Source: Parasitella parasitica (taxonomy: Eukaryota > Mucoromycota > Mucoromycetes > Mucorales > Mucoraceae). Taken from it: 41,308 nucleotides of DNA. A program made the translations under genes and the position numbers. Below, one piece after another: positions 2,405 to 40,104 of the stretch; the first letter of the stretch is position 1, and the number at the start of each line of letters is the position of its first letter. The notes under the pieces are model-generated. The model saw only the letters and a list, made by a program, of their open reading frames with translations. It was not told the DNA's origin and did no database searches. Location of the stretch: contig MU619358.1 of assembly GCA_025201805.1 (NCBI GenBank), positions 48,451 to 89,758 of the forward strand, given 5' to 3'.

Positions 2405-3081
2405 CTAAGATGATGACTTCAACTTTGCTTGTCTTGCTTTTTTTCTTGAATGGTATTGTCTTCTGTATGATTCGAATCCATCCTGGAATTGTTTAGGAAT
2501 CTTGGTTAAAAAGCTTAGTCTACCCCCTTGTTCTTTGTTAAATTCCAAATTAAATGACGATAATGCAATGTTGCAATGAGGGATAAATCTAAACGAATGA
2601 ATAAACCATCTACTGCTATGCAAAATTTACTTACTTTTGTGCGAAAACAATCTTTTCAGAATACATGCCAGACCGATAGAAGAAGACTAGGCCGCCTGCC
2701 ACACTTAATAAAGCGATTGTATTCAATAAATGGAACATAAAAACCTTTCGCATCGTATTAATGAAAAACATCCTTCATATAAGTAGCATACTTACTTTGC
2801 TTGGATCGATAAAGACAGCATAAAAAAAATAAGCGAGCGACATAAATAATCCAACCAAAAGAGCTTGATTTGAGATTATGTTAGCTTATATTGTAAACTG
2901 ATGTTTACTAGGTAGCCTATTTACTCTCATATTTTCTCTTTCGCTTTAGTAAACGTGTCATGTTTCCCCGTAAACGCTCTTCAAAAATAACCAAATCCCT
3001 ATACGTTGCTGTATTGTTGCTGCTATTGCTGTTCGATGGCCTAGGCTGAGGCCTATTGTTGGCATCCTTTTTAGTATCCAT
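2405..3081 (-). CDS. Spo7-like regulatory subunit of the nuclear envelope lipin phosphatase
   Basis: Four exons by hand: 3081-2925, 2863-2796, 2744-2635 and 2588-2405, all with GT-AG introns that keep the frame. Spo7 family proteins (CNEP1R1 in animals) partner the phosphatase Nem1 at the nuclear envelope/ER and activate lipin (Pah1), which controls phospholipid versus triacylglycerol synthesis and nuclear membrane growth. Evidence is the conserved YRDLVIFEERLR block in exon 1, two hydrophobic segments (exons 2 and 3, the first followed by FIDPSK), and the C-terminal RFIPHCN...SFN...LTKIPKQFQDGFE block typical of fungal Spo7. The N-terminus is a Ser/Asn-rich linker. A start six codons upstream (3099) is also open. 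The family assignment is strong; the partner Nem1 is not in this window. Confidence 0.87.
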
Positions 3082-3206
3082 CTTCAAATTTGTTATCAAA
3101 AAAAGATAGAAAATGGGGTTTCAAATGATTGGAAATAAGCAAATATATTAGAACAGATGTCTGGTTTTGGTCCAGTCAAAATATTAGATGCTCATCCCTA
3201 CTTTAA

Positions 3207-3419
3207 TCAAGTGATGTTTATATTCGCTAATATCAAGGCATTGAGCAAGGCAATTGTTATACCCAAGGAGAAGAATAATACTAATATCGCCACATTAATC
3301 GACCTTCCCCTGAATAAAAGATCACAAGATTTCGGTACTTGTAGCAAACATTTAAAGTGACAATCAACACAAGTAAATGAGCTACTCGATATTGACACAA
3401 TCCGTGGTTCCCTAGACAT
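3207..3419 (-). CDS. Possible small Cys-containing single-pass membrane protein
   Basis: A 70-codon open frame on the minus strand, upstream of the Spo7-like gene and in the same orientation. It has a short Cys/His cluster (CVDCHFKC) and one strongly hydrophobic stretch of about 25 residues near the C-terminus, which would suit a tail-anchored protein. The ATG context is reasonable. I do not recognise a family, and another short frame overlaps it on the opposite strand, so this may be chance. Confidence 0.22.
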   Translation of the reverse strand: MSREPRIVSISSSSFTCVDCHFKCLLQVPKSCDLLFRGRSINVAILVLFFSLGITIALLNALILANINIT

Positions 3420-3718
3420 GGCGTCATTTCATTTTTAGTTATATAATACAATGCTCCATCATGAATTTACAGCTTATCACTTTAGGGACAAACTACTTCC
3501 CAGTTTTGTATCGATGCTATCACCATTTGTGCACTACTACTATTACCTGGTTAGTCCTAATTCCTTACGATCACCGCTGGCGACTATTATTAAGACCAAA
3601 CAGGTCGCACAGATGCATTGACAAAGGTATGATGCAGTGGATTGAGACACCGTCCGAATACATTGATCATCATGACATAACTGTGCAATTGGTTTATGCA
3701 AGGAAAATAAAAGTAAAA

Positions 3719-3727
3719 CATATAAAA
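3719..3727 (+). promoter_or_regulatory. TATA-like box of the LEA-like gene
   Basis: The sequence ACATATAAAAGCG lies about 65 bp before the ATG at 3789 and is followed by a 17-nt T tract and a C/T-rich leader (3742-3765). A strong TATA element plus pyrimidine tract is a common arrangement for highly or inducibly expressed fungal genes. Position and sequence are seen directly; the function is inferred. Confidence 0.55.
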
Positions 3728-3788
3728 GCGCCATTAACGAGTTTTTTTTTTTTTTTTCTCAATTCTCTACAAAATACTAAAAATCAAA

Positions 3789-4403
3789 ATGTCTTCCATG
3801 TTAACAAAAAGCACTCTTTTCGCTGCCATCGGTCGATCTACAGCTACCAAGGTCATCTATGTTCCCGCTGCTTCTTTGCATATGTCATCTGTCATCTACC
3901 GGGAAACCATTGTAGAAAAAGCAAAACATGTTGCTGAGGATTTGAATAAAAAGGTTGGAAAAACAATAGGCAATGCAATTGAAGGCGCTGAAAACGTTGC
4001 CCATACTGCTTCAAACAAGTCCGAAGAACTAAAGCAGTCTGCCTCCAATGTCAACAAGCAAGTAGGAAATAAAGTTGATCAAGGCTTTGAGGCTGCTGAA
4101 GAGCTGAAAAGACAAGCTACCAAGAAGTCTGAAGAATTAAAGGACTCTGCTTCCAGTATAAATAAGGATTTGGGTAAAAAAGCTAGCCAAGGTGTTGAAA
4201 CTGCCGAGAGCGTTGGTAATGCGGCCTCTAAGAAGGCTGAACAACTAAAGAGCGAAGCATCCCAAACTGCACAAAATCTAAAGAAAAAGGCCCCTAGTGA
4301 AAAGACTATCATTGACTCTGTTAAAGAAGGTGTTTCCGCTGTTGAAAATGTTATTGACAATGCAGCCAATGGAGCCAATGGAGCCAACAAAAAGTCAAAG
4401 TAA
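3789..4403 (+). CDS. LEA-like repeat protein, probably mitochondrial
   Basis: Single-exon, 204 residues. The first 37 or so residues lack acidic side chains and contain Lys, Arg, Ser and Ala, consistent with a mitochondrial presequence. Residues from about 40 to the end are Ala/Lys/Glu/Ser/Asn-rich and strongly amphipathic, with two clear copies of a block of about 40 residues built around 'KKSEELK..A' and 'N...G.K..QG.E.AE'. This resembles group 3 late embryogenesis abundant proteins and YtxH/apolipoprotein-like stress proteins, which are disordered when wet, fold as helices on drying and protect membranes and enzymes. No catalytic motif is present. A TATA box and T-rich leader suggest strong or stress-induced expression. 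It is convergent with the Tsr4-like gene (57 bp between stops). Confidence 0.75.
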   Translation: MSSMLTKSTLFAAIGRSTATKVIYVPAASLHMSSVIYRETIVEKAKHVAEDLNKKVGKTIGNAIEGAENVAHTASNKSEELKQSASNVNKQVGNKVDQGFEAAEELKRQATKKSEELKDSASSINKDLGKKASQGVETAESVGNAASKKAEQLKSEASQTAQNLKKKAPSEKTIIDSVKEGVSAVENVIDNAANGANGANKKSK

Positions 4404-4459
4404 AACGCTATATTTACGGAATAAATCTGTTACATTTGTACATAAAAAATCAGCTTTAT

Positions 4460-5846
4460 TTAATCTGCCTCGTATTGAACTAGTATAGTTTCTTCCATAT
4501 AAGACACATCCTCTATTGCGCCTTGATGGCAATCTTTTTGGCATACAAAAACTAAAATAGTGCCAAATTCCATACCGACATTCCAGCTATCTAATACAGT
4601 TTTGGTATCTATTTGTTTTACTTGGGCATGAATTGGTTTGGGAGCAGACTCTTTGGAAGCAAATTCAGTTGTGGGTAAAATTGATAGAATATTGGGCATC
4701 AACTGAAATTCGAATACTCGGGGCCCTTTACAGTATTTACAAGGACTTGTGATGAGTTGTTGGTCTTGAGGTCTCAAGGCAGAATAAAAGAGGGGCTGGC
4801 CGTTGAATTCGTATCGAACACACTGTGAAGGTGCGTGTTCAACCCTCTCTGTAAACCTTTGAAAATGTTTATCAACGCCTTTGGGTAAATGCTGCTTTTC
4901 ATAGGTCTCTCCTTGCCATGTTTCTCCACTATTTCCTTCGTCAATATCCATCAACATGTCCTTTTCCATATCCAAATATTCTTTATAGCGGCTCATGTCA
5001 ATGTTCATCGAATCGTAGGCGTCTGTCTTTTCTTGATCAATATATAGATATTGTCCAGGAAACTGCGGCAACTTGGCTGTGTCAACAGGATCCTCGATGC
5101 CTAATTCGTTCATTTGCTGCAAAAGATCTTCATGATGGATATCCTTCTTTGCTGATGCTGCTGTTCCAAATGGTGTTGATGCGACTATGGATGCTGCACT
5201 CGTAGTGGATGGCTTCTTCATACCAAATCCGTTTCCCGTAGAGGGGGCCGAGCCAAATGAACCTGGTGAACCTGATGAACTGCCCCATAAGTCTCCCAAT
5301 TGAAATCCATTTCCAAATGCTTTTTGTTGCTTGGCAGCCGCTGCCTTTTGCTTCTCCTCCTTTTTTCGTTTTTCCTCGTCTTTTTGACGCTGTGCTTTTA
5401 AATAAGCTTGATCTACAACATGGGCACGAATGGCTGAAAAACTAAAAAGCCATTCGATTGAATAACCAAATTCCATCAGCTATAAAATGTTTGATGCCTA
5501 CTTACCTTCCGGCTTTTCTCATACATGAACGTCGATTACAAGCCCATACATACAAAACTCGATGGTAGGGGGACTCTTGTAGGGGAACATAGCTTTGGAA
5601 AACCAAGTACATGGGTTTGCGACAAATGCGACATTCGCAAACCTTGACAGATGGAGGTTTGCTTGGCTCAAGCCATAGCTATAAAAGACATGTCAGCTGC
5701 AAATCAAGGGCAATATCTAGATGTTTACGTACAGGTAGCCCACCTAACTTGGTAACATAAGCGTCGTTGTCAGTTTCAATGTCTCCATCTGGAATACCCA
5801 GCAGAATACAGGACTCCTTTTTGGTTTGTTGCTTTTTGTTTGACAT
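4460..5846 (-). CDS. PDCD2/Tsr4-family ribosomal protein uS5 chaperone
   Basis: Three exons: 5846-5733, 5678-5506 and 5441-4460, giving 422 residues. Yeast Tsr4 and animal PDCD2/PDCD2L bind nascent uS5 (Rps2) and deliver it to 40S pre-ribosomes. The N-terminus has the family motif 'YVTKLGG.P.WL', followed by a Cys cluster (CECRIC ... ACNRRSC) expected to bind zinc. A charged Lys/Glu/Gln-rich linker and a Gly/Ser-rich region follow, then the PDCD2_C domain: FQRF..RV...P.QC.RY, QPLFYS, and CKYC....FEFQLMP. It ends near EFGTI.VFVC..DC. The start ATG at 5846 gives the family-typical N-terminus; upstream in-frame codons have no family similarity. Orthology to Tsr4 is supported by the linker architecture. 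Confidence 0.9.
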
Positions 5847-32288: not shown

Positions 32289-32357
32289 CGCTGCTGATCG
32301 ACTTCAAACATTATTAAAAATTATTCTTGTATCGAATTTAAAACAAATATATATAAC

Positions 32358-33350
32358 ATGTCTGCCTTCAATAACAATAACACCTCTGTCAACAACGCTG
32401 GCGTCGATCCCACTCGTCGTCCCAACGCTGGTCAATTGAATGAAAACCATGGTATTGCTGCTACTGGTTTGAATGAGCCTCACACTCATGCTACTGTCCC
32501 TGCTACTCAAGGCACCACTGCCGAACGACGCTCTGATCACCTGAACTATTCAGGTGCCCCAATTGCTGCCAACAAGGTTGATCAAGCTAGTACTCAACAC
32601 CCTTCTTCGACCAACTACGCTGCCGGTACTGGTATCCCTCCTGTAAATAATTCCGAACATACAAGAGAAAATGCTATGTCAGGATCCCATAATGTGCAAA
32701 ACCCTTCCCCAACCAATCGCACCGCCGCCACTGGCATTCCACCTGTAAATACTGCCGAACATGCAAGAGAAAATGCCTTGTCAGGATCTCATAATGTGCA
32801 AAACCCTTCCTCAACCAATCGCACCGCCGCCACTGGCATTCCACCTGTAAATACTGCCGAACATGCAAGACAAAATGCTGCTCAAGAAGCTCTTTCAGGA
32901 CATAACGGTCATCATCATAACGCTGGTACTGGTGTAGGCTCCCATGGTAGTGCCACTGCTGCTGCTGGTGCAGGACATGCTGCCGCTGACAGACTCTCTG
33001 ACAACAATCACAGAGATGGCAATCATCACATAGATAGCCATACTTCCGCTGTCAAGGGCGACCACGGTGCATCCCACCACACTGATCATCACATTCCCGG
33101 TGTTACTGGTACTACTGGAATGAGACATGCTGGCGAACCTCAACATGATGGACTTCTTCCCAACAAGAAACATAACCACTTGGATGACAATACTACATCG
33201 GGCGCCCATCCTGCCACTTCTGATGGTGTTGAAGGCAAGCCCTCTGCTGGTGACAAGATCAAGGGTAATCTTGAGAAGATGGCTGGCAAGATCTCAGGCA
33301 ACGAAGCTAAGGTCATCGCTGGAGAGAACAAAGCAGCTGGCCGCACTTAA
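32358..33350 (+). CDS. Repetitive His/Asn-rich hydrophilic protein with CsbD-like C-terminus
   Basis: Single exon, 330 residues, without signal peptide or membrane segment. Residues about 75-175 hold three tandem copies of a 34-residue repeat (TNRTAATGIPPVN.AEHAREN..SGSHNVQNPS); the DNA period is 102 bp, for example 32689 and 32791. A His/Gly-rich central region follows (HNGHHHNAG, DHGASHHTDHH), with potential to bind metal. The last 35 residues (GDKIKGNLEKMAGKISGNEA.....ENKAAG) resemble the CsbD-like stress-protein motif. The composition is that of a desiccation- or stress-type disordered protein. A clear TATA box suggests inducible expression. Protection against stress is an inference from composition, not from homology. 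Confidence 0.72.
   Translation: MSAFNNNNTSVNNAGVDPTRRPNAGQLNENHGIAATGLNEPHTHATVPATQGTTAERRSDHLNYSGAPIAANKVDQASTQHPSSTNYAAGTGIPPVNNSEHTRENAMSGSHNVQNPSPTNRTAATGIPPVNTAEHARENALSGSHNVQNPSSTNRTAATGIPPVNTAEHARQNAAQEALSGHNGHHHNAGTGVGSHGSATAAAGAGHAAADRLSDNNHRDGNHHIDSHTSAVKGDHGASHHTDHHIPGVTGTTGMRHAGEPQHDGLLPNKKHNHLDDNTTSGAHPATSDGVEGKPSAGDKIKGNLEKMAGKISGNEAKVIAGENKAAGRT
32587..32890 (+). repeat. Three tandem 102-bp coding repeats
   Basis: The second and third copies are almost identical in DNA (ACCAATCGCACCGCCGCCAC occurs in both, 102 bp apart); the first is more diverged. They encode the 34-residue repeat of the His-rich protein. Recent expansion by slippage or unequal exchange is likely. Confidence 0.8.
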
Positions 33351-33772: not shown

Positions 33773-36700
33773 TTATGATTTCAAATTATACGCTTCAGAC
33801 ACCCTCCTTGAATGTTTTCCAAAGCCATCATCTGATAATACGGGAGTGGTTGACGCTGCCTTGAGAGAATATACGAGCTGAATCATTTGATCCTCGTCTT
33901 TATCCAAGTTCATGCCATGTTGCGAAGCATAGCTTTGATCAGCTCGTAAGATGGATCGAATTTGATTCTGACACTTGTCAAACACTTGGGCATTATGCTT
34001 CGAATTGGATTTATCAGTGACAAATCTATACTTTTCAATCTCATGGCAAAGCGATGCAATGTCATCTAATTTCAAAATAATGTTTTCGCTTTCGTGTGCG
34101 CCGGAAGACTATCGAAACAATTTTCTATTAGACATCCTATGATTCGTGGGCGGACAGCAGGAAACTTACTAAATCACCCAATTCTTCATTCTTTCTGCTT
34201 GATACCATGACTAGATCCTCGTTGGTTGTCACACCTAATTCGAGCAATAGAATTTGAGCATCAGGAGAGAGCTTCGTCTTTGGATGCACAGCATCAATAA
34301 AGCCAATAGCCAAAAAGTTATCGACTGCATTCTGGCTGGCTTCGGTGGACAAGACTTCACGGTAGACTGTTCTTCTGCCAGTAATAAGATGGGCAGCTAT
34401 CCACTGGGACAGAACGGGTACGATCTTGCGAGGCATGAATGGTAAATCGCGAAGTGCTGACAATGAGCATGATGTGATCCAGTAAGCATCTAGAGTTGGA
34501 TATATGAACGAGGCGAGTAAACAAACTCTGGTATATTCAACTTCATTATTCTCAATGGTAACTGCCTTGGTATATTGCCCTTCTTCATTCACAACAAGCA
34601 AATTCTTTTTGACAAACCATTCCAAAAGGAGGTCAAATTTCTATGATACATGTACATGGTTCAGAGTTATATACAAAGCAATAGCAAAATATGGACAATA
34701 CCTCTTTTCTGCTCCAAGGATAGATGAACTCATGCTTGAACAAGCGAACCAAAAACGTGAATTGGGCGAAAAGGTCTTTTTTGGTGGTTTCCTTGACGCC
34801 TGAGAGATAGACTACAGCAAACAGAGCTTCAGGCAAGAAAATTTCAATCAGTTGACTAGCCATGAAGGAGAGATCCATGACGTTATCTGCGTGCTCCACA
34901 ACTCTGACGATGGTTTGATCGCTGATACGCTTGCCATCCATTGTGACATTGCTACGGGCATCTAAAAGATTCATAGAGTAGGCAACAATGGTAGATACAT
35001 CTTCGTCAGCTTGCCAGTCAATATTGATGTACTTTTCCAAAAGCTCCTCACGCAGCCAAGAGACATGCTTGTTGATCTTCCCCATCGAAATACCTCCTGT
35101 AGCTCGTCCAAACAAAATTGTCGCAGCAACAAGGGTGACAGGACTTACCACAGCAGCCTCATGTTGGCCTCTCTGTACTTTGCGGGCAACATAATCTGCT
35201 ACTGCGTCTTCATCCTTGACGGCCACAGTACTATAATGATATTGCATGAGTTTTTATATATATACGGCACCCGCCCCCGCCCCCGCCTCCGCCCCCGCCC
35301 CCTCAAGTGTCAATGCTGTACCTTAATCGTTTGTTGCTGTTTGTAGGCAAGCTAGCTTCCTTGACAGCCTGTCGAACATCAATCACATCACCAAAACCAA
35401 CAAAAGCACGGCCATATTTGCCTTTTTCAGCCACCCCGTTGTCTTTGGTAGCTGCTCTGTCAGCAACAGAAGCACTAGGACGAAGAAAAGAAGATGTCAC
35501 CGTTAAACTGCGAGGCTTCTGGTCCAAAACCTGGTCGATGAGAGCCCTCAATTCAGGAATCTTTTCGTAGGTAATGTTGACTGGAACTAGAACAGTTTCT
35601 CTCTCTGTAGAGAGAGAGGAAAAGGACGCAGAAGGCGTGGGCAGTGGCGATAGCTGCTTGGGCATTTCCTCCTGTTGTTGGTTACGTCCCAAAGTGCCTT
35701 CAATAACCATGTTCATTAACCCATCGTGATATGCAGTCTGCAGTCTGCCAGTACGAGAACGAGCTCTTTCAATCACCATGGATAATGCTCCGTGCTCTTT
35801 CAAGAGAACTTCTGTATAAGCAGCGGCAACAGCAGTATTCAGAGGAGAGCGAGAAGTAAGATCTCGGCGGACAAAGTAAGCGCCTGAAATTCTTAAAATA
35901 TCAGAGATGGGGCCAAGCAAAGCAAGAGCTAGAGAGTAGAATAGAATGGGATTAAAACTAGGGCAAATTGCTTCATGAAAAAAAAAAAAAAAACCAACAT
36001 ACCCTCATCACAGACAATAGCAGGTACAGGCAGATGGTATCTCAGGCAGATGTACCACACTAGCAGTTGATCTATGATAGTCTTTGATACAGGAACGTAA
36101 ACCACATTCTTGTCTTGAATTTGTTCCTTCAGCCGTGCAATATCTAGTTCATTGACACGCAAACTGGCAAAGAGACGTTTAAACAAGGCATTAAGAAAAG
36201 CGCCGGCAGACCAAATATAAGGGAGTTGTGTTCTTTCCTTCATTCTCTGAAGGATCTTTAAGGACTCACCCACCACAGTATTCTGCGGCACTCCTGAAGT
36301 CTCAATAATCTAGTTTTTTATATGAGTTTTTTTTTCTTTCTTTCTGCAAGCTGAATGTATGTTCTCTCAGTTTACCTGTCGAATACTTTGGCCCACTCTT
36401 CTATCGTTGAGGACCTCGATCCTAATATGCTCCTCATGGGATTCAGACTGCTTAGCCCAGTGGCCCAGGTTGACCATATTGTCCTTGTTCTTTAAGATGT
36501 CTGAATCATCATGACACCAGTCATCAAGGCTGGCATCAAAGTCATTCACCCATTCTTCCATCTTTTTCTTGTCTTTGAGCTCCTGCCCTGGCTTTTCTAG
36601 AGACAGCACGAGCTCGTTCAACATGCGCTCTGTTCTTTTTTGGATATCAGACGCGCTAAATACAACAGATTCGATCTGTCTGTCGATGATCGAGTGCTGT

Positions 36701-38290
36701 GCTGCTCCAGGATGCAAATAAAGGGAGCAGGCCCATCCCTCAGGCACAGTGATGTTCCTCAGCTCCAAAGGTGGCGAGGGTGTGATGTAAGCATGCACAC
36801 CAAATGCAAAATTGTTCATATATGTGTCCCAGTTCATGTGCTTGAAACGACTCAGGTTGAACTGTGCGTCATTGAGCATATCTTGGTCCATCTGTTGTAC
36901 ATTCTGATGATCAAAGACCCAGGAATGACGCAGAAATGGCTGCAAGGACTCGACCACTCGAGAAGCAAGCTCGATTGTTCGATTCAACAAGTTAGCATCA
37001 GATGCTGCACCAGCTTTCCCACCTATACCACTGCCGTTGCTGATAGCATTGGTCACCGAAGAGAGCGACTGCGGTAAGCTGTACTTCATGAAAAATTTGG
37101 CCTTGAACAAGGATCGATTCGCAACAAAATATTCCTGAGCAGTAGGTAATACTTGTTTGGTATTGCGTAGCCAGTACGAACGCACCCCATCATATGCTCT
37201 ACGCCAAGTTGTTTCATCAAACCCAGATGCTGATACTTGGTAGATATACGGGAAATACTGCATATTGGGCACAATAATGCTGTTTGCACTGTCACCGTCT
37301 GCCAACACCTCGTTGTAGGGCAACAAAAAGCGATAGCCAGGCTGTGTCATGAATGCCGCGCTCCCAAGTACTGTTCTGACGAGATAATCCACTGGCACAA
37401 TGTCGGCTACCAATCCACCCATGTCAGGCTGCAATACCTGAATACCTTTCCCCATTAGAAATACTGCCGCATTAGCACCTGTGACACCATCCACCTACTC
37501 AGTAGACAGCAGACAACTGTTAGCTTACCCAGCCAGGGAGTGGCTCGAAAGCGCCAGCGCCCACTTGGGTTGCTCTAACAATGGCAACTGGCCACTGCGT
37601 TTTCCCGCCCTGCGCTTCCTCAATGCGATTCAAATCAACACGTTTCATGATCAAGTGCTCAGTGAGAGATTTTGTGAATGTGTAAGTGTTTGGATAGTGC
37701 ACCAAAATACGTTGAGTCATCTTTGGTATGTCTTGAAGCTCCAGATCAACTATTTCAGTTAATAATTCTTCAGGATCGCCCACCTGCATTGGATAGACTC
37801 GTTCCTGAATATGGCCATTAGGCAAATTGGGATCGGTGTACGCCAATGACATGTGAATAAACGCCTCTATTACGATAGTGTGTGTTGAGTATTCGCTGAT
37901 TTTCCGGCTCCTTTAACGCCTCTATTTACCCATGTGTTTACATTCGTCTGCCAGATCCATCATTCTAAGCGTACCCAAGGTATTTGTCTAGGCAAAGGAA
38001 TAAGCACGCCATCGCAAACACGCCACGGCTGTATATGTAATTGTCTCACCTCTAAAGCTAGATCCAATCTTTCACTATAATTCAGTGTGGCTGCGCAATG
38101 TATCACAACATTTACATTTTCAGTAATCTTTTCTCTATCCTGTTCAGACATGGATAAATCTGGCGAGATGATATCACCAGAAATGGGAATGATTTTATTC
38201 TTGACGATAGAGTCAAATGTTGCTTTTCCCATCATACGTCGAAGGATCAAGAATGCCTGCATAAAGGAGGTTAAAAAATGACCATGCCGT

Positions 38291-38325
<35 letters not shown>

Positions 38326-38934
38326 CTGCATCTCTCAAGTTACCTTGTTGTTAAATACTTCATTTCGTAGCCTCTCTGATGGTCTGCCAATTTTGCTGCG
38401 TTTGATGCTGCCACTGCGGACCAAAATGTAGATGTGCCCCAAATCCTGCCTCAAGGCCTGAATCAACTTCCACAAGATGGCCTTTCCAACAAAACCAGTT
38501 ACACCTGTCATTAAAATATTCTTGTTTCGATAGAAATCGATGACTGGGCCTTGGAAATAGGATTCGTCCATGGGCGTTGGCTTTGTGTCGTCATTGTGCA
38601 AGGACTCTGGTGTGAGAGTAGAATGTGATGAGGTGGTGGATGTTTCATCAGGTATGTTGCTTTCGGATATGATGGAGGCATCTGTTGGCAGCGGCGTTTG
38701 TGGTTCATCCAGTATCAATTCATCACCGTTTATAGCTGATTCAGGAGCTTCCGGCTCATTGTTGATAGTGATTTGGGGCGGTGAAGGTGGGCTCGGTGCC
38801 TCTGGAGCTTCATTAATGTCGTTTTTCTCTTCAGGAACCGCAGTTTCTTGGCTTGTTGTCAAAGCTGGCTTAGCAGCTTCAATTTGCTCTTGTTTTTGTT
38901 GCTGTGGGCTTTCTTCTTGCTTGATTTCCGACAT
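33773..38934 (-). CDS. Fatty acyl-CoA reductase fused to a GPAT/DHAPAT-like acyltransferase
   Basis: Ten exons: 38934-38344, 38256-38050, 37987-37930, 37866-37529, 37494-36376, 36309-36003, 35928-35322, 35230-34702, 34640-34170 and 34108-33773. They sum to 1,521 codons with every join in frame. Residues 1-130 are a Glu/Pro/Ser-rich disordered leader. A FAR-type reductase follows: TGVTGFVG nucleotide-binding loop at 143-150, CAATLNYSE, and catalytic YTFTK (Tyr347/Lys351). From about 772 comes a glycerol-3-phosphate/DHAP acyltransferase-like part: SKTIID (846-851) in the place of HX4D, GAYFVRR (889-895), ERARSR (927-932) in the place of EGTRSR, and LVPVNITYEK, then a helical C-terminal region. 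The first domain makes fatty alcohol from acyl-CoA; the second resembles the enzyme that acylates DHAP. Both are needed for ether-lipid synthesis. It is divergent from Eaf6. The altered acyltransferase motif leaves its activity open. Confidence 0.85.
35264..35303 (-). promoter_or_regulatory. G-quadruplex-type run in intron 7 of the fusion gene
   Basis: The sense (minus) strand of the 91-nt intron between exons 7 and 8 reads repeated GGGGGC units: four G5 runs separated by single C or GGAGGC, then GGG. In an AT-rich locus this is striking. Such a run can fold as a G-quadruplex in RNA or DNA and could influence splicing. The sequence is seen directly; folding and effect are inferred. Confidence 0.6.
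38298..38325. repeat. (TA)n microsatellite in intron 1 of the fusion gene
   Basis: Fourteen TA units within the first intron (38343-38257). Likely polymorphic in length. Confidence 0.9.
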
Positions 38935-39184: not shown

Positions 39185-40104
39185 ATGCCAGACGTTACAG
39201 AGACTAAAGATGTGAGTAAATTCAGCGTAGGGCTTATGTAGAGTTTATTCTAACAACAAGTATCGCAGACTAGTGCTGCTGCCGCTACTGTGAATTCCAA
39301 CAACACATCAACAAATGATACAGCCCCAACATCTACTACTACTAAAGCTACAACAACTGCCTCCAACACCACGCCTACCACCACTGCTACTGCTACCGCT
39401 ACTGCCACTACCAATGCCACCAACACTGCCACTACCACTACCACTGCCACTAACACTGCCGCTAACACTGTCACTAACACTGCCACTGCCACCAATAATA
39501 ATAAAAATACCACGACACCAAGTACGGAAACGCCAGCTGTGGAGCCACCTCAAGTAACTCGTCAAAAGTACGAAGAAGCCAAGCTCGAACTACAAGCACT
39601 GTTAGCAAGAAAGAAACAGGTGGATACAAATCTGGTAATTGAGGATTCAATCATATATTGGATCCCTGCGAGCTGCTAACTTTCGCTGGTAATAGATCAA
39701 CTTGGAAAACGCCATCTATTTGTTCGAGGGATCTTATTTAGAAGATACGCAACAGAATGGCAACATCATCCGTGGTTTTGATGGCTACTTGACCAATAGA
39801 CCTGATCGAAGGAAGCCAAAATTCACTGAATTAGACAGGCTCTTTTCGTTGTCATCATCTACATATCAAAAAGTACGTTGACAGTATACCGGCAAGTGCC
39901 AAAGTTCTAACTTTTAAGCTTGGTTTATTATAGGCTCTGGCACAAAAGGAGGAGAAAGATCAAGATTCTAGTCAAGATGATAGATCCGCTTCGAGTTCAT
40001 TAGCAGCCAGGAGGGAAAAGAAGCGTAGACTTAAAGCACATGAAGGAATAAGGAAGAAAAAGAGCTCTGCAGGCAGAGATACAGAGGATGAGCTAGATGT
40101 TTGA
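39185..40104 (+). CDS. EAF6: Eaf6 subunit of NuA4/MOZ-type histone acetyltransferase complexes
   Basis: Four exons: 39185-39211 (only nine codons), 39269-39634, 39696-39872 and 39934-40104; 246 residues. Eaf6/MEAF6 is a small subunit of MYST histone acetyltransferase complexes in the nucleus. Recognition rests on the conserved block at the exon 2/3 junction: a coiled coil ([17 protein letters not shown]) then [18 protein letters not shown] and [11 protein letters not shown]. The C-terminus is Lys/Arg-rich ([17 protein letters not shown]), fitting nuclear import. Between residues about 15 and 95 sits a long Thr/Ala/Asn-rich tract that has no place in the family core and is encoded by repeated ACN-GCN codons. 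The core spacing is normal. Confidence 0.9.
39290..39520 (+). repeat. Low-complexity ACY/GCY codon repeat in Eaf6
   Basis: An imperfect tandem run based on ACTGCC/ACTACC hexamers encodes the Thr/Ala/Asn tract of Eaf6. It produces long open frames on other frames and the opposite strand that are artefacts. Confidence 0.8.

What the first reader, a model, noticed from the sequence alone, without database searches (positions are those of the whole stretch)
33773..38934. Reductase-acyltransferase fusion suggests fungal ether-lipid synthesis
Ten exons join in frame into one 1,520-residue protein with a fatty acyl-CoA reductase (Rossmann TGVTGFVG, catalytic YTFTK) followed by a GPAT/DHAPAT-like domain. 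In animals FAR1 and GNPAT are separate peroxisomal proteins that together feed plasmalogen synthesis; a similar FAR-acyltransferase fusion is known from Dictyostelium. Such a fusion in a Mucorales-type fungus would channel fatty alcohol and acyl-DHAP production in one chain. Fungi are usually thought to be poor in ether lipids. The C-terminus (NLKS) is not a clear PTS1 signal, so localisation is open.
Basis: partly seen in the sequence, partly recalled or inferred. Interest (0 to 1): 0.82.

Follow-up and report, generated by a model that had tools for sequence, protein, structure and literature searches.

The report
Reductase fused to dead acyltransferase
A large protein of a mould joins a probable fatty-alcohol-making enzyme to a second enzyme-like half that has lost its key catalytic residue in its relatives among these moulds, so it probably does not make ether lipids as first proposed; why the silent half is kept so strictly is an open and testable question.

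Summary
In detail: ten exons (33773-38934, minus strand) give a 1,520-residue protein identical to annotated Parasitella parasitica protein P0001, a fatty acyl-CoA reductase followed by a PlsB/GPAT1-type acyltransferase fold. The ether-lipid reading is not supported. (1) Catalytic His of motif I (HX4D) is Ser here; it is absent in 85 of 85 alignable Mucoromycotina relatives and present in 55 of 55 alignable others, one of them a fungus outside the group, Massospora. (2) PTS1-like ends: 0 of 86 Mucoromycotina, 46 of 56 others; 79 of 86 carry a shared RR[VI]S tail instead. (3) No alkyl-DHAP synthase was found, though the assembly looks incomplete. The genome has three such fusions and one separate PlsB-type acyltransferase with intact motifs. 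The disabled half is about as conserved as the reductase in clade A, more so in clade B. Best reading: a reductase coupled to a pseudo-acyltransferase that binds or regulates rather than acylates; a new variant of the known FARAT fusion. No activity was tested.

The parts
33773..38934 (-). Whole gene: FAR + PlsB-type pseudo-acyltransferase fusion, 10 exons, 1,520 aa
   Evidence: Spliced model; identical to annotated P0001
38344..38934 (-). Exon 1 (low-complexity N-terminus and Rossmann start)
38485..38508 (-). TGVTGFVG, NAD(P)-binding motif (residues 143-150)
37370..38508 (-). NAD_binding_4 (fatty acyl-CoA reductase) domain, residues 143-439, across introns
   Evidence: Pfam E 7.6e-51
37670..37684 (-). 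YTFTK, reductase YxxxK motif (residues 347-351)
37495..37528 (-). Intron 4, only 34 nt; its removal keeps the frame
   Evidence: protein then identical to P0001
36784..36990 (-). Sterile (FAR C-terminal) domain, residues 567-635
   Evidence: Pfam E 3.5e-10
35699..36129 (-). Acyltransferase domain PF01553, residues 832-950, across an intron
36070..36087 (-). Motif I: SKTIID where active relatives have HX4D (Ser at residue 846 in place of catalytic His, Asp 851 kept)
   Evidence: profile alignment to GPAT1 8e4y
35861..35884 (-). Motif II: GAYFVRRD (kept)
35747..35776 (-). Motif III: VIERARSRTG (E and RSR kept; EG changed to ER)
35573..35587 (-). Motif IV: VPVNI (Pro kept)
34293..35425 (-). GPAT_C domain PF19277, residues 1042-1368, across introns
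   Evidence: Pfam E 7.8e-36
33782..33808 (-). C-terminal tail RRVSEAYNL in place of a PTS1
   Evidence: pattern in the last 60 residues of 79 of 86 Mucoromycotina-type proteins, 0 of 56 others

Best explanation
The gene encodes a fatty acyl-CoA reductase whose C-terminal PlsB/GPAT1-type domain is a pseudo-acyltransferase. Inferred mechanism: the N-terminal Rossmann-plus-Sterile unit reduces acyl-CoA to fatty alcohol with NAD(P)H. The C-terminal half keeps the fold, the motif I Asp and most glycerol-phosphate-binding residues but has no catalytic base, so it binds ligand (acyl-CoA and/or glycerol-3-phosphate or DHAP) without transferring the acyl chain, and serves as a tether or as a sensor that controls the reductase, with the RRxS tail as a possible phosphorylation switch, outside the peroxisome. 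Shown here: domain content, loss of His, loss of PTS1, conservation of the disabled half, three paralogues. Inferred: reductase activity, ligand binding, regulation, location.
Against: No biochemical, expression or localisation data were available. Residues nearly invariant in the 68 Mucoromycotina rows but mostly absent in 13 others (C871 67/68, H919 68/68, H1189 66/68, C1310 68/68, H1336 68/68) could form a new active site. In clade B/C rows, 6 of 34 lose the reductase Tyr or Lys and one is gapped there, so reductase activity may not be what all paralogues conserve. Paralogue C lacks the RRxS tail (P0079; the C67 frame), so the tail is not general. Ligand binding and regulation are inferences from residue retention.
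Confidence: 0.6

Rival explanations
1. One reading: a working FARAT that makes fatty alcohol and acyl-DHAP in one chain for peroxisomal ether-lipid synthesis.
For: Same domain order as Dictyostelium and Tetrahymena FARAT (PMC7375469 and PMC9113324, passages). Motifs II and IV, the motif I Asp and the motif III E/RSR are kept. Massospora, a fungus outside the group, has a fusion with the His.
Against: Catalytic His in 0 of 85 alignable Mucoromycotina relatives; PTS1-like end in 0 of 86. AGPS not found with PF02913 or two AGPS queries, although Dictyostelium AGPS scores 184.6 bits against PF02913; the four genes found read GEHG or AEHG, not the SHHHG of AGPS. Authors state that fungi lack or largely lack ether lipids (PMC13256971, passages; PMC4207751 section 13).
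Confidence: 0.06
2. The acyltransferase half is not dead but remodelled: a new catalytic site built from residues special to these fungi performs a different acyl transfer or hydrolysis, for example on fatty alcohol made by the reductase half.
For: C871, H919, H1189, C1310 and H1336 are nearly invariant in 68 Mucoromycotina rows and mostly absent in 13 others; the core is more conserved than the reductase in clade B.
Against: The former His column itself takes S, A, T, C and Y, so it holds no shared new catalyst. Proximity of the new invariants to the pocket could not be checked, as no model coordinates were in the script box.
Confidence: 0.22
3. The protein supplies fatty alcohols for a wall polymer or surface lipid of spores or zygospores, as plant MS2/DPW reductases do for the pollen wall (recalled); the second half is a scaffold.
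Against: No expression data; the one paper search for it returned 1 paper, on charophyte algae (listing only). The fold match reflects the reductase family, not the role.
Confidence: 0.12
4. Artefact: a mis-joined gene model or two neighbouring genes.
For: A 34-nt intron is unusually short. No transcript data were available here.
Against: Same protein annotated in a public record; full-length relatives in many Mucorales and in Umbelopsis; two paralogues in the same genome.
Confidence: 0.01

Closest known systems
FARAT of Dictyostelium discoideum (fatA; PMC7375469, passages; P0097) and TtFARAT of Tetrahymena (Dittrich-Domergue 2014, seen only as cited in PMC9113324 and PMC7375469)
   Same: FAR at the N-terminus, PlsB-type acyltransferase at the C-terminus, one chain
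   Different: Dictyostelium FARAT keeps HRSYID and EGKRSR and ends in SKL; the Mucoromycotina proteins lack the His, the motif III Gly and PTS1, mostly carry an RRxS tail, and occur as three paralogues
Fungal GDPAT of Smart et al. 2014 (PMC4207751: abstract, sections 9, 11, 13)
   Same: PlsB/DHAPAT/mitoGPAT superfamily in fungi
   Different: GDPATs have H[+]SHxD and putative PTS1; the text has 0 hits for 'reductase'. The separate gene on contig C31 fits GDPAT, the window gene does not
Human GPAT1 (8e4y)
   Different: Catalytic His replaced; 17% identity; fused reductase
Animal FAR1 / plant MS2-DPW reductases
   Same: NAD_binding_4 + Sterile, TGxxGxxG, YxxxK
   Different: Those lack the acyltransferase half (recalled)

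Membership tests
FARAT (bifunctional ether-lipid enzyme) | N-terminal FAR with TGxxGxxG and YxxxK | tested here: met
   TGVTGFVG, YTFTK; Pfam NAD_binding_4 and Sterile
FARAT (bifunctional ether-lipid enzyme) | C-terminal PlsB/DHAPAT-type acyltransferase fold | tested here: met
FARAT (bifunctional ether-lipid enzyme) | Catalytic HX4D motif | tested here: not met
   SKTIID; His in 0 of 85 alignable Mucoromycotina relatives, 55 of 55 alignable others
FARAT (bifunctional ether-lipid enzyme) | Peroxisomal targeting signal PTS1 | tested here: not met
   Ends in NLKS; PTS1-like in 0 of 86 Mucoromycotina relatives, 46 of 56 others. Targeting by another route is not excluded
FARAT (bifunctional ether-lipid enzyme) | Alkyl-DHAP synthase in the same genome | tested here: inconclusive
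   Not found, but proxies suggest an incomplete assembly: proteasome matches on 13 contigs where 14 subunits are expected, seven strong chaperonin places where nine are (expected numbers recalled)
FARAT (bifunctional ether-lipid enzyme) | Makes acyl-DHAP and fatty alcohol; cell has ether lipids | not testable with these tools
   Needs assay and lipidomics
Fatty acyl-CoA reductase family | NAD_binding_4 plus Sterile domain above cut-off | tested here: met
   173.2 and 40.4 bits against cut-offs 20.1 and 35.4
Fungal GDPAT (Smart 2014) | Motif I H[+]SHxD and PTS1 | tested here: not met
   SKTIID and NLKS; definition from PMC4207751 sections 9 and 11

The most novel reading that the evidence does not exclude
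In Mucoromycotina an ancient FARAT was turned, once and before its split into three paralogues, from a bifunctional ether-lipid enzyme into a reductase governed by a non-catalytic acyl-CoA or glycerol-phosphate-sensing acyltransferase domain, in two of the paralogues with a phospho-switch tail: a new kind of lipid-flux regulator in oleaginous moulds, or the same fold carrying a new active site.
Probability: 0.35. Interest if true: 0.75.

Novelty: new variant of a known kind. Interest (0 to 1): 0.55.

Why it matters
Mucoromycotina include important oleaginous moulds. A three-member family that joins a probable fatty-alcohol enzyme to a GPAT-fold domain without its catalytic base, kept under strong constraint, would be a good system for asking why pseudo-acyltransferases are retained. 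It also corrects an inference that databases invite: domain hits alone would assign these proteins to ether-lipid synthesis or GPAT activity, and several entries carry the name 'cyclin-dependent kinase inhibitor far1'. It makes directly testable whether a fungus of this group makes ether lipids, since the expected fusion is present but looks disabled.

Tried and rejected
Ether-lipid synthesis was tested through motifs, targeting signal and AGPS and rejected as the best reading. The alkenyl-desaturase family PF10520 was searched in the own genome: nothing, but the control rang nowhere either, so this says nothing. An AGPS search of the large protein database listed 120 of 3,519 hits; no row that carries an organism name is a fungus, but most rows carry none, so it is inconclusive for fungi. 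A search with Dictyostelium FARAT added protist fusions and bacterial PlsB and no named fungus in the 120 listed of 156. Foldseek hits beyond rank 3 are above E 0.001 and were not used. Ten paper searches (open-licence PubMed Central only) showed in their listings no report of this fungal fusion or of its lost His; I opened passages or sections of seven papers only (PMC7375469, PMC9131029, PMC10629195, PMC13161914, PMC9113324, PMC4207751, PMC13256971). PMC10629195 on Mucoromycota lipid metabolism has 0 whole-word hits for 'ether', 'plasmalogen' and 'alkyl'. The sporopollenin idea found no support. Massospora P0087 keeps the His but has a very long branch (4.13); its place is unsure and it was left out of the second tree. 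Alignment A1 used 81 of the 120 proteins listed; one search added the other 39 and P0121-P0142. The domain identities used 30 clade A and 26 clade B rows picked by hand. Clades A and B were set by identity to P0001 or P0062, so the clade C row P0079 counts there as B. Two chaperonin-family matches in very long frames (contigs C72, C15) were not counted as chaperonins. Whether the RRxS tail is phosphorylated, and whether C871 or H919 lie near the pocket, could not be tested.
Full report
WHAT IS THERE. On the minus strand, ten exons from 38934 to 33773 join through nine GT-AG introns into 1,520 codons and a stop. My first automatic model missed the right intron 4 because it allowed none under 45 nt; removing a 34-nt intron (37528-37495) restores the segment EPLPGWVDGVTG. 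The resulting protein equals, letter for letter, the annotated Parasitella parasitica protein P0001. The genome held is 30.7 Mb in 232 contigs.

THE KEY RESULT. The acyltransferase half has no motif I histidine. Published motif definitions for this superfamily are H[+][S/T]Y-phi-D (DHAPAT) or H[+]SH-phi-D (mitoGPAT, fungal GDPAT) for catalysis, with motifs II and III for glycerol-3-phosphate or DHAP binding (PMC4207751, Table 1). The window protein reads VPVSKTIID. The other, P0040, is a truncated entry. Of 56 further relatives (the fungus Massospora, dictyostelids and other amoebae, ciliates, unnamed environmental proteins), 55 have His; the remaining one, P0119, is an insect protein with no acyltransferase-type Pfam domain listed. 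The motif III Gly is Arg or Lys in 84 of 85 and Leu in P0079; among the 56 others it is Gly in 54, Ser in Massospora and Val in P0119. The spacing from the motif I Asp to the motif II Arg pair is 42 residues in 68 of 68 Mucoromycotina rows and in 12 of 12 others (Massospora left out), while the stretch from motif III to motif IV is 28 in those 12 and 23-93, median 63, in the 68. The register is therefore not in doubt.

TARGETING. Dictyostelium FARAT is peroxisomal and ends in SKL (PMC7375469, passages). A broad PTS1 pattern of my own fits the last three residues of 46 of 56 relatives and of 0 of 86 Mucoromycotina-type proteins. Massospora, with SRS, is among the ten without it. Instead 79 of 86 have RR[VI]S[EQ][AV]Y[NHS]L within the last 60 residues, 0 of 56 others. 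The seven exceptions are P0027, P0034, P0039, P0040, P0079, P0085 and P0086: P0039 is named partial and stops inside the motif, five are short entries of 836-1169 residues, and P0079 belongs to clade C and ends without the motif, as does the last long frame of the contig C67 gene. RRxS resembles a basophilic-kinase site; that is recalled and untested.

CONSTRAINT. The disabled core is not drifting. Mean pairwise identity of residues 771-1000 is 71.8% in clade A and 75.1% in clade B, against 73.8% and 53.7% for the reductase domain; between the clades it is 53.7% against 40.5%. Five columns (W856, C871, A910, P998, D1009) switched from one near-fixed residue in 13 relatives to another in 68 Mucoromycotina rows. 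Further residues fixed in these rows include H919, C1310 and H1336 (68 of 68 each) and H1189 (66 of 68). These leave room for a new function. Reductase Tyr and Lys are both intact in 31 of 34 clade A and 27 of 34 clade B/C rows, one of the latter being gapped there.

FAMILY HISTORY. In a tree of 45 acyltransferase halves the Mucoromycotina fusions form one clade at 96/98, with Massospora just outside on a branch of 4.13; in a second tree of 26 rows without Massospora the clade stands at 100/100. Paralogues: Mucorales A (window gene) 100/100, B with Umbelopsis 96/90, C 100/100 (two rows); the Umbelopsis row P0038 is unresolved at the base. The same genome holds A (window), B (contig C68, P0062) and C (contig C67, VPVSKTTLD). 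One loss of His on the stem is the simplest reading. That Massospora keeps His fits a loss after the fusion arose, but its place is unsure. The separate C31 gene does not join the fusions.

ETHER-LIPID PATHWAY. PF02913 finds genes on four contigs (C49, C112, C94, C89). Two AGPS queries find only the same four, at 22-34% identity and not over the C-terminal part. All four read GEHG or AEHG where AGPS reads SHHHG. Dictyostelium AGPS scores 184.6 bits against PF02913, so an assembled AGPS should have been seen. Completeness proxies: proteasome matches on 13 contigs where 14 subunits are expected, and seven strong chaperonin places where nine are expected (expected numbers recalled). Absence of AGPS is thus probable, not proven. 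Papers read in passages or sections say fungi apparently or largely lack ether lipids (PMC13256971; PMC4207751 section 13) or plasmalogens (PMC9131029).

A BETTER CANDIDATE FOR ACYLATION. Contig C31 carries a separate PlsB-type gene with HKSHID, EGTRSR and, if its last long frame is the last exon, a C-terminal AKI. That fits the fungal GDPAT class, described as having a likely PTS1 (PMC4207751). If this fungus acylates DHAP or glycerol-3-phosphate with a PlsB-type enzyme, this gene is the likely one.

VERDICT. Observation confirmed; ether-lipid interpretation not supported. It is a new variant of the known FARAT architecture in which the acyltransferase half has become a conserved pseudo-acyltransferase, or less likely a remodelled enzyme. 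The reductase activity, the ligand and the cellular role remain to be shown.

Noticed in passing
37495-37528, minus strand: Intron 4 of the gene is only 34 nt long, much shorter than the other eight (61-91 nt); its removal gives the protein identical to P0001.
   Followed up: yes
35231-35321, minus strand (intron 7): Intron 7 carries a run of GGGGGC-type hexamers on the transcript strand, which might form a G-quadruplex; intron 1 holds a long (TA)n run.
   Followed up: no
L025 (contig C31:108500-115500), about 2555-4994, plus strand: Separate PlsB-type acyltransferase with intact HKSHID and EGTRSR motifs and a probable C-terminal AKI, fitting the fungal GDPAT class of PMC4207751.
   Followed up: partly
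P0007, P0014, P0021, P0037, P0043, P0046, P0053, P0059, P0079: Public orthologues are named 'cyclin-dependent kinase inhibitor far1', apparently a name clash between FAR reductases and yeast Far1.
   Followed up: no
L026 (contig C67:15500-22500): Third FAR-acyltransferase paralogue in the same genome, also without motif I His (VPVSKTTLD), with motif III further changed (LDKVRSRTG) and apparently without the RRxS tail.
   Followed up: partly
P0049, P0050, P0071, P0074, P0078, P0079: Six clade B or C members also lose the reductase Tyr or Lys of YxxxK while keeping the acyltransferase core; in those both halves may be non-catalytic.
   Followed up: no
39185-40104, plus strand: Divergently transcribed neighbour is a NuA4 histone acetyltransferase subunit (PF09340, E 1.8e-25 on joined open pieces) with a long Thr/Ala/Asn repeat near its N-terminus.
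   Followed up: partly
32298-33347, plus strand: Neighbouring His/Asn-rich open frame with repeated 'TGIPPVNTAEHARENA'-like units; no Pfam match at E 0.01.
   Followed up: no
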